From Tubiluchus corallicola (Eukaryota > Priapulida > Priapulimorpha > Priapulimorphida > Tubiluchidae), in assembly GCA_030141605.1 (NCBI GenBank), contig JAQGDQ010000011.1:1362066-1426065 (forward strand): a stretch of 64,000 bases of DNA, in the 5' to 3' direction. Below the pieces are notes generated by a model. It was not told where the DNA came from. It did not search any database and worked only from the letters and a program-made list of their open reading frames with translations. Position 1 is the first letter of the stretch, and each line of letters begins with the position of its first letter. Made by a program: the position numbers and the translations under genes. Of the stretch, positions 45,401 through 47,594 are shown one piece after another.

Positions 45401-47594
45401 GGTAAATGTCACTGTTGTAATAAGGAGCACTGGGATTGGAATTTTGTTGAAGGTTTTCAGAAAATTGCGATATTGTTATTGATAAAAACTTACATGTGAA
45501 CTATTAAACTGACTTCTATTGAGAATCTACTTGACAACCAGAATTAATTTATATATGTGAAATATTAACATAAAAACAATAATTTGCTTGACAATCACTG
45601 GCCTGCACATAAAAACTTCTAATGTCTCCAAAGTATAGTTTATTAGTGCAAAATCGAAAAACCGGATGACACCTAATGACTTAGCGACCAATTTTCTTTT
45701 TAGCCCTTTAGTTTTGTCAAAACTTATTGCTTGTGCATTAAAAGAATGATTGTTAACTGCTATAGTGACAGTATAAGCAAGTGGGTCTTACCTTTATGTG
45801 CAGTGTTTAAAAAAAGACATTAAAAAAGCTCCCAATCTTGCACTTGGCAAAAATAAACTGTTTTACCTTTCATAATTACCTTAACTAGAGACGATAATGT
45901 CATTTGATTCACGAGAATCTTAGTATTAATGCAAGCGGCTATCTGCAGTTACCATGCTTCATCGGGTTTCAGGGCTTAAATGGACCCTCCAAGTGGTGCC
46001 CAATTAGCCACAACGTTAGCTGGCTATTCTGCCATATTGCCATAACCCCAACAGTGGCAGCATACTCCCCCAAAGCCAACTAGAATTCCCATACAAGTAA
46101 CAAACATAACAAATACAAGTTGAAACAAACAGGCAAAAAGCCAATTCGTAATTCTGTCACAGCAGTTTAATAAAAGAGAGTTTCTGCAACAATCACACAA
46201 CACTTTTTTGTGACTCAGCAATGACGTCATCCTACAATCGCGATGACTGTAAACTAGAATGAATTGTATTCTAAAGCCAGTTTTAGTTTTAAAATCTATT
46301 AAATTCTTCAGAAATTTGTGAATAGAATTAGTGAATATAGCAAAACGTACTGGGTGTGGTTCTGACTGTGACTGTAGTGATGTCATTTTAAAATCAGAAT
46401 TTTCTGGTGTTTGACCGTAGCAGAAACTCTCTATTGCAGCTGAAGTTGCATACCTGACGAAGAATCTGATCCTCATTATGTCGTATAGGAATTGACTCGT
46501 ACTCAGCTGCTGAAGATATGATCTCAATCAAACCTTTTATCTTTGTCTTGGCATTTAACGACATACTGAACAATTCTGTAATAAACACAAATAAACGATG
46601 GCTAAAATGTTTAACTAAAAATAATATAAACACAGTGGAGATACAAGTCGTGAGAGCTTACAGTTGTGAGAGCTTAGACTTCAATTTTTTTTAATTGCAG
46701 CTTACCCATGGTTGTGTAGTGGATGTAATAACAAGTTACAATCATTTCTAAATTCAAGATGTCAAGCTTACTCATGATTCTGCAGTTAACATAATAATAA
46801 GCTGCAATCATTCCTAAATTCAAAGCAGTCGAGCTTACCCATGGTTGTATTGAAGATGTAATAATAAGCTGCAATCATTCCTAAATTCAAAGCAGTCGAG
46901 CTTACCCATGGTTGTATTGAAGATCTAATGATAAGCTGCAATCATTCCTAAATTCAAAGCAGTCGAGCTTACCCATGGTTGTATTGAAGATGTAATAATA
47001 AGCTGCAATCGTTCCTAAATTCAAGACGTCAAGCTAACCTATGGTTGTACAGTTAATGTAATAATAAGTTGCAATCATACCTAAATTCAAAGTAGTCAAG
47101 CTTAGCTATGGTTATGCAGTTGACGTACTAAAAAGCTGCAATCGTTCCAAAATTCAAAGCAATCAAGCTTACCTATGGTTGTATAGTTGATGTAATAATA
47201 AGCTGCAATCATTCCTAAATTCAGTGGTGTCACATCCATCTCATCTTCAATACTGATACACTTTGACTGCTCCAGATCTGACAGAGTTGTTTCCACGAGA
47301 TCCGATAAATGATCAGACAAATGACGATGAGACACTCCTAAAAACATAACGTACAATAAAAGTGCTGCATTTTACAAAAACATGGCGAGAATTATTCTTC
47401 ACGTGTGTTTGTCATTTTCTATAAACTGACCTCTCTTCTTTCTTACCTTGCAGGTTATAGTAGTTAGGATTCAATGTCATGCGTCTGTACAGGAATGTCC
47501 AGGTGATGTAATCCACAGCATCTTGCTTATTCTCTACAGTTTTCGTAACAATCTCCGCATTGAAATGATCATGGAGACAGTGATCCAGGTGAGA
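39491..47594 (-). CDS. SNRNP200: SNRNP200 block 3: C-terminal cassette winged helix and Sec63 unit, stop
   Basis: Exons: 47447-47594, 47173-47337, 46454-46575, 44598-44741, 42241-42417, 40424-40584, 39954-40035, 39491-39727. They encode [185 protein letters not shown] and an acidic SESDSD end. This is the second Sec63 unit (helical bundle, helix-hairpin-helix, Ig-like). The exon ending at 47173 is followed by a tandem array of copies of its own 3' edge. Confidence 0.97.

What the first reader, a model, noticed from the sequence alone, without database searches (positions are those of the whole stretch)
46576..47225. SNRNP200 intron built from tandem copies of the preceding exon's 3' edge and its splice donor
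Seven 66-67 bp copies of the exon end (codons for [16 protein letters not shown] plus GTAAGC donor) follow the true donor and fill about 80% of a 597-bp intron. Most copies keep a usable donor, so the spliceosome faces an array of near-identical competing 5' splice sites, inside a gene that itself encodes a spliceosome helicase. Because 67 is not a multiple of three, using a decoy would usually shift frame and meet a stop, which could act as a brake on expression through nonsense-mediated decay. The near-identity of three central copies shows that the array is still changing.
Basis: partly seen in the sequence, partly recalled or inferred. Interest (0 to 1): 0.72.

Follow-up and report, generated by a model that had tools for sequence, protein, structure and literature searches.

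The report
Minisatellite overlapping a splice donor
The end of one exon of a splicing-helicase gene, with its splice signal, is repeated seven more times at the start of the next intron; this is a real but known kind of repeat that most likely only lengthened the intron, and nothing in the sequence shows that it regulates the gene.

Summary
In an SNRNP200/Brr2 gene (minus strand) the exon ending at 47173 is followed by a 597-bp intron (47172-46576). About 79% of it is a tandem array of seven further 66-67 bp copies of the exon's last 52 nt plus the start of the intron. Copies 3-5 are 95-98% identical; other pairs are 72-90% alike. Five of seven copies keep GTAAGC, one has GTTAGC, one has lost GT.

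The regulatory interpretation is not supported by what could be tested. The array matches only itself in its 343.5-Mb genome. The true donor scores highest in the intron by a simple matrix, though by U1 pairing energy four decoys are nearly equal. Decoy copies change equally at all three codon positions, and their donor motif is not better kept than the rest. Of 90 donor edges tested, 2 lie in exon-edge repeats against 1.5 expected if minisatellites were placed at random; both are in this window, and outside it the count is 0 of 70. The second is a TNFAIP8-like gene with a duplicated donor edge and a probable acceptor-edge array.

Best reading: a minisatellite overlapping an exon end, lengthening the intron neutrally. 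Close parallels are published. No RNA data could be seen.

The parts
47173..47337 (-). SNRNP200 exon whose 3' end is the source unit of the array
   Evidence: Splice model; protein match
47158..47224 (-). Unit 0: exon end (52 nt, [17 protein letters not shown] plus one base), true donor TAG|GTAAGC with G at 47172, first intron bases
47091..47157 (-). Copy 1; donor lost (TAGCTAAGC); contains the in-frame TAA at 47104-47102
47025..47090 (-). Copy 2; weak donor TAG|GTTAGC at 47038
46958..47024 (-). Copy 3; donor TGG|GTAAGC at 46972
46891..46957 (-). Copy 4; donor TGG|GTAAGC at 46905
46824..46890 (-). Copy 5; donor TGG|GTAAGC at 46838
46758..46823 (-). Copy 6; donor TGA|GTAAGC at 46771
46691..46757 (-). 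Copy 7, most diverged; donor TGG|GTAAGC at 46705 (the array by TRF ends at 46699)
46576..47172 (-). The 597-bp intron; acceptor TTATTACAG before 46575
46454..46575 (-). Next SNRNP200 exon ([12 protein letters not shown]...)
21991..22101 (-). TNFAIP8-like exon, second case in the window
   Evidence: Pfam TNFAIP8 E 4.1e-11 on the frame holding it
21917..22009 (-). 48-bp duplication of that exon's 3' edge with donor (true donor 21990, second donor 21942); 40 of 44 aligned bases identical
22130..22453 (-). 55-bp array, 5.9 copies, in the intron before that exon; units resemble the acceptor edge of the exon (probable)
   Evidence: not significant with stiff gaps

Best explanation
It is a minisatellite that includes the last 52 nt of an SNRNP200 exon, the donor and the first intron bases. 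Repeated head-to-tail duplication on the intron side of the donor lengthened a pre-existing intron. The coding sequence is unchanged because the 5'-most donor is still the exon end (inferred), so all further copies are intronic and drift. The array grew and turned over by unequal exchange or slippage, seen in a homogenised core of copies 3-5 and older outer copies. Shown: anatomy, copy relationships, lack of coding constraint, single occurrence in the genome. Inferred: neutrality, and exclusive or near-exclusive use of the donor at 47172.
For: Array and units; exon and intron model with protein support; decoy substitutions 12, 15 and 12 at the three codon positions of the 51 coding columns; the donor window is not unusually conserved, 29 of 59 windows being as low or lower; true donor matrix score 5.65 against at most 4.28 for any decoy, rank 3 of 19 mapped donors of the gene; only the array itself matches in the 343.5-Mb genome; 90 donor edges tested, 1.5 expected inside an array by random placement, 2 found, both inside the window; outside it 0 of 70.
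Against: Four of seven decoys still score well (4.28) and pair with U1 almost as strongly as the true site (-9.2 against -9.4 kcal/mol). Strong GT sites are denser here than in the gene's other 18 mapped introns together (6.7 against 1.3 per kb), so some decoy use is plausible. Two exon-edge cases in one 64-kb window, possibly three edges, is more than the 0 of 70 seen elsewhere, although the window was picked because of one of them. The donor matrix is recalled, human-like, not trained on this organism.
Confidence: 0.8

Rival explanations
1. Expression brake: U1 binds the decoy donors, a share of transcripts keeps array sequence, meets the TAA at 47104-47102 and is destroyed by nonsense-mediated decay, possibly as feedback on a spliceosome component.
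For: Four decoys with good scores; every decoy scoring above zero yields the same premature stop; 6.7 strong GT sites per kb against 1.3 in the other mapped introns. Splicing-factor feedback through poison exons is described in papers seen only as a search listing.
Against: No sign that decoy donors are kept by selection; the nearest copies have a dead and a weak donor; the same kind of duplication occurs in a TNFAIP8-like gene. A stop on intron read-through is what almost any intron gives.
Confidence: 0.07
2. [quoted passage not shown]
For: Array begins in exon and holds AG|GT in the exon unit; multiple 24-bp exonic duplicates spanned by an intron are reported in fission yeasts (Zhu and Niu 2013, as told in the Introduction of PMC4974935).
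Against: The unit includes sequence after the donor that is not coding, and the stretch before the real acceptor has no similarity to the unit, so the acceptor was not made by the array; an older intron is needed.
Confidence: 0.05
3. Assembly artefact: copies were expanded or collapsed.
For: Copies 3-5 differ by only 1.5-4.5%; the genome is a draft of 2344 contigs; no reads could be inspected.
Against: Copies 1, 2, 6 and 7 are 72-87% alike to the others, with private substitutions, which assembly errors do not produce; the locus sits inside a 1.56-Mb contig. Only the number of central copies could be wrong.
Confidence: 0.03

Closest known systems
Minisatellite in the human interferon-induced gene 6-16 (IFI6, G1P3), Turri et al. 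1995
   Same: Tandem repeats at an exon-intron junction, each able to act as a splice donor. PMC4526556 (passages) says two downstream repeat units serve as donors, giving three mRNA species. The 1995 paper itself is not held; its title was seen in reference lists.
   Different: Unit length there is about 12 bp (recalled); here 66-67 bp with 52 nt of exon. Use of downstream donors is shown there and unknown here.
Intron changes by tandem genomic duplication (Rogers 1989; ATP2A1, Hellsten 2011; fission yeast genes, Zhu and Niu 2013; potato RdRp, PMC4974935)
   Same: Duplicated segment holds AG|GT or crosses an exon-intron boundary; protein unchanged because copies become intronic. Fission yeast SPOG_01682 has an intron across four 24-bp duplicates (PMC4974935 abstract and Introduction).
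   Different: Those make a new intron; here a pre-existing intron is lengthened.
Poison-exon or NMD-coupled feedback in splicing factors
   Same: Alternative use would bring in a premature stop in a splicing gene.
   Different: No evidence of use, selection or conservation here; papers seen only as a listing.

Membership tests
Donor-bearing minisatellite (IFI6/6-16 type) | Tandem array of units of minisatellite length (10-100 bp) | tested here: met
   Period 67, 7.9 copies
Donor-bearing minisatellite (IFI6/6-16 type) | Array crosses an exon-intron junction | tested here: met
   Unit 0 holds the exon end and donor
Donor-bearing minisatellite (IFI6/6-16 type) | Units contain a donor consensus | tested here: met
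   5 of 7 extra copies have GTAAGC
Donor-bearing minisatellite (IFI6/6-16 type) | Several units used as donors in mRNA | not testable with these tools
   No RNA data
Donor-bearing minisatellite (IFI6/6-16 type) | Copy number varies between individuals | not testable with these tools
   One assembly, one copy of the locus
[quoted passage not shown]
   TAG|GTAAGC in the exon unit
[quoted passage not shown]
   Stretch before the acceptor is not similar to the unit
[quoted passage not shown]
   No relatives held
NMD-coupled feedback | Alternative product carries a premature stop | tested here: met
   TAA at 47104-47102 before every decoy scoring above zero
NMD-coupled feedback | Decoy sites kept by selection | tested here: inconclusive
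   Donor columns not more conserved than others: 29 of 59 windows as low; only 7 copies, so low power
NMD-coupled feedback | Regulated use of the alternative site | not testable with these tools
   No RNA data

The most novel reading that the evidence does not exclude
Tandem duplication across exon edges is a recurrent mode of intron lengthening in this genome, leaving many genes with arrays of spare donors or acceptors, and in SNRNP200 the spare donors titrate U1 and act as a dose-sensitive brake.
Probability: 0.06. Interest if true: 0.7.

Novelty: new member of a known kind. Interest (0 to 1): 0.3.

Why it matters
It is a clean natural example of an intron that grew from copies of its own exon edge while the protein stayed the same, and a ready-made test of how the spliceosome picks one of several near-identical donors. 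Eight dated copies with graded donor strength lie in one transcript. If decoys prove silent, that shows how strongly position and exon definition protect the true site; if they are used, it is a natural brake.

Tried and rejected
Kinesin exons: one donor edge of 63 scored 114 (L028), but on inspection the 21-bp array starts 27 bp inside the intron and copies no exon, so it was not counted. The HMM match end had overrun the splice site there; match ends are only approximate splice sites in that set. Acceptor edge of the TNFAIP8-like exon: with stiff gaps the score was 28 against a shuffle maximum of 31, not significant; after I saw the alignment I allowed one long gap, and it scored 45.4 against a maximum of 30 in 787 control pieces. 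The second test was chosen after the first, so I call it probable. Intron 0 acceptor edge of SNRNP200 scored 23 against a control maximum of 22 (18 controls); treated as noise. An eighth degraded copy near the acceptor was considered and rejected. Genome-wide pattern AGGTAAG three times at 25-55 spacing: 6426 places against 300 for the reversed control, but the listed places include many GGTAA microsatellites and a family with CAAATGTAGAC around AGGTAAGTC, so it says nothing about exon edges; stricter patterns did not complete (and repeats). A tree of the eight units had no fork with strong support. Pfam scans of six blocks (three frames each) outside the two genes gave only a DDA1 match and the C-terminal Sec63 piece of SNRNP200; the plus strand of 401-10300 and of 32401-42300 was not scanned. 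SNRNP200 introns below 42418 and upstream of the first exon found in L008 were not tested. Paper searches found no paper on this locus among the rows listed.

Full report
What is there. TRF reports a 67-bp array of 7.9 copies at 46699-47223. It lies across the 3' edge of an SNRNP200 (Brr2) exon on the minus strand. The exon piece matches human Brr2 chains at E 4e-17; six further frame searches found 20 exons in the window, and a script placed 19 introns between them. The exon 47337-47173 ends with the codons for [17 protein letters not shown] plus one base; the intron runs 47172-46576; the next exon starts at 46575 with ELFSMSL. The protein is continuous across the junction.

Units. Eight units (exon unit plus seven) of 66-67 bp were aligned. 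Copies 3-5 are 95.5, 97.0 and 98.5% identical in pairs; all other pairs are 71.6-89.6%. Donors in order: exon TAG|GTAAGC; copy 1 TAGCTAAGC (GT lost); copy 2 TAG|GTTAGC; copies 3-5 TGG|GTAAGC; copy 6 TGA|GTAAGC; copy 7 TGG|GTAAGC. So the donor copies nearest the exon are the broken ones. A unit tree gave no strongly supported fork.

More than chance. The exon edge scores 110 against its own intron body and at most 23 against 26 control pieces from the gene's other introns. None of the other 18 mapped donor edges and, apart from one marginal score (23 against 22, intron 0), none of 19 acceptor edges stands out. Seven more introns in L008, upstream in the same gene, gave donor scores of 17-26 and acceptor scores of 16-23 without a control of their own. 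The 801-bp query matched only itself in the 343.5-Mb assembly, so the unit is not a dispersed element and no second haplotype copy was seen.

Splicing strength. With a recalled, human-like matrix the true donor scores 5.65, third of the 19 mapped donors of the gene, and highest of the GT sites in the intron; copies 3, 4, 5 and 7 score 4.28, copy 2 1.46, copy 6 0.29. By U1 duplex energy the gap is small, -9.4 against -9.2 kcal/mol. Strong GT sites number 4 in 597 bp here, against 23 in 17,831 bp of the other 18 introns. Each decoy scoring above zero would extend the exon through an in-frame TAA at 47104-47102. The frame after the decoy is irrelevant: the decoy at +267 keeps the frame and still meets the stop.

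Signs of selection. In the seven copies, differences from the plurality base number 12, 15 and 12 at codon positions 1, 2 and 3 of the 51 coding columns, as expected without coding constraint. The nine donor columns carry 5 differences; 29 of 59 nine-column windows carry as few or fewer. With seven copies this test has little power.

A second case. A TNFAIP8-like gene (Pfam E 5e-53 and 4.1e-11) has an exon at 22101-21991 whose last bases and donor are duplicated once, 48 bp on, with 40 of 44 aligned bases identical; score 68 against a maximum of 32 in 300 shuffles. Use of the second donor (21942) would add 48 nt, 16 codons, without a stop, because the open frame containing the exon runs to 21839. 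On the other side of the same exon a 55-bp array (22130-22453) resembles the acceptor edge once a 13-nt gap is allowed: 45.4 against at most 30 in 787 control pieces, but 28 against a shuffle maximum of 31 with stiff gaps. A query over both arrays matched only itself in the genome.

How common. In the 200 kb fetched around the window there are 23 arrays of period 20-400, covering 1.9% of bases; the chance that a junction lies inside one with 10 bp on either side is 1.65%. I tested 90 donor edges: 19 and 7 in SNRNP200, 1 in the TNFAIP8-like gene, and 63 ends of kinesin matches (63 of the 111 matches, in 13 fetched stretches). Kinesin match ends only approximate splice sites. Expected by random placement: 1.5; found: 2, both in the window chosen because of one of them; outside it 0 of 70. 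One kinesin edge scored 114 but its array does not copy the exon. So no special targeting of exon edges is needed.

Mechanism. Tandem duplication that begins in an exon and ends past its donor leaves the first exon copy and donor in place; everything after can be spliced out as intron. Such arrays are therefore tolerated and drift. This explains the unchanged protein, decaying decoys, and the homogenised core. It lengthens an old intron rather than creating one: the stretch before the acceptor shows no similarity to the unit. Which donor is used in RNA is inferred, not shown.

Known parallels. The human 6-16 (IFI6) gene has a minisatellite providing several donors (Turri et al. 1995; title in reference lists; one sentence on repeat units used as donors in PMC4526556; the paper itself is not held). 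PMC4974935 (abstract and Introduction) reviews intron gain by tandem duplication, including a fission yeast intron across four 24-bp duplicates and a potato duplication across an intron-exon boundary. The present array is a further member of this group of tandem duplications at splice junctions.

Limits. The number of central copies could be affected by assembly.

Noticed in passing
window 21917-22009: 48-bp duplication of a TNFAIP8-like exon end with donor; the second donor would add 16 open codons, so an alternative isoform is possible.
   Followed up: partly
window 22130-22453: 55-bp array before the same exon, probably copies of its acceptor edge; the intron beyond (about 22500-23500) looks full of similar degenerate repeats with AACAATG by eye.
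   Followed up: partly
L016 9101-9757: 42-bp array of 15.7 copies at 94% matches whose unit contains AAAGGTAAGAAAAG; the open frame beside it was not tested.
   Followed up: no
L028 3001-3255: 21-bp array of 12.1 copies starting about 27 bp after the donor of a kinesin exon; it does not copy the exon.
   Followed up: yes
G000:C5:114037-115527: Long 33-bp array whose unit contains ACAGGTAAGTGG, listed by the pattern search; letters could not be fetched.
   Followed up: no
G000, whole genome: AGGTAAG repeated three times at 25-55 spacing occurs 6426 times against 300 for the reversed pattern, among the listed places often as GGTAA microsatellite or a CAAATGTAGAC-containing family.
   Followed up: partly
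window 11876-11935 (+): Short match to DDA1 (PF10172, E 4.5e-06).
   Followed up: no
window 39536-39778 (-): Likely C-terminal SNRNP200 exon (Sec63 domain, E 3.4e-13); introns around it were not tested.
   Followed up: no
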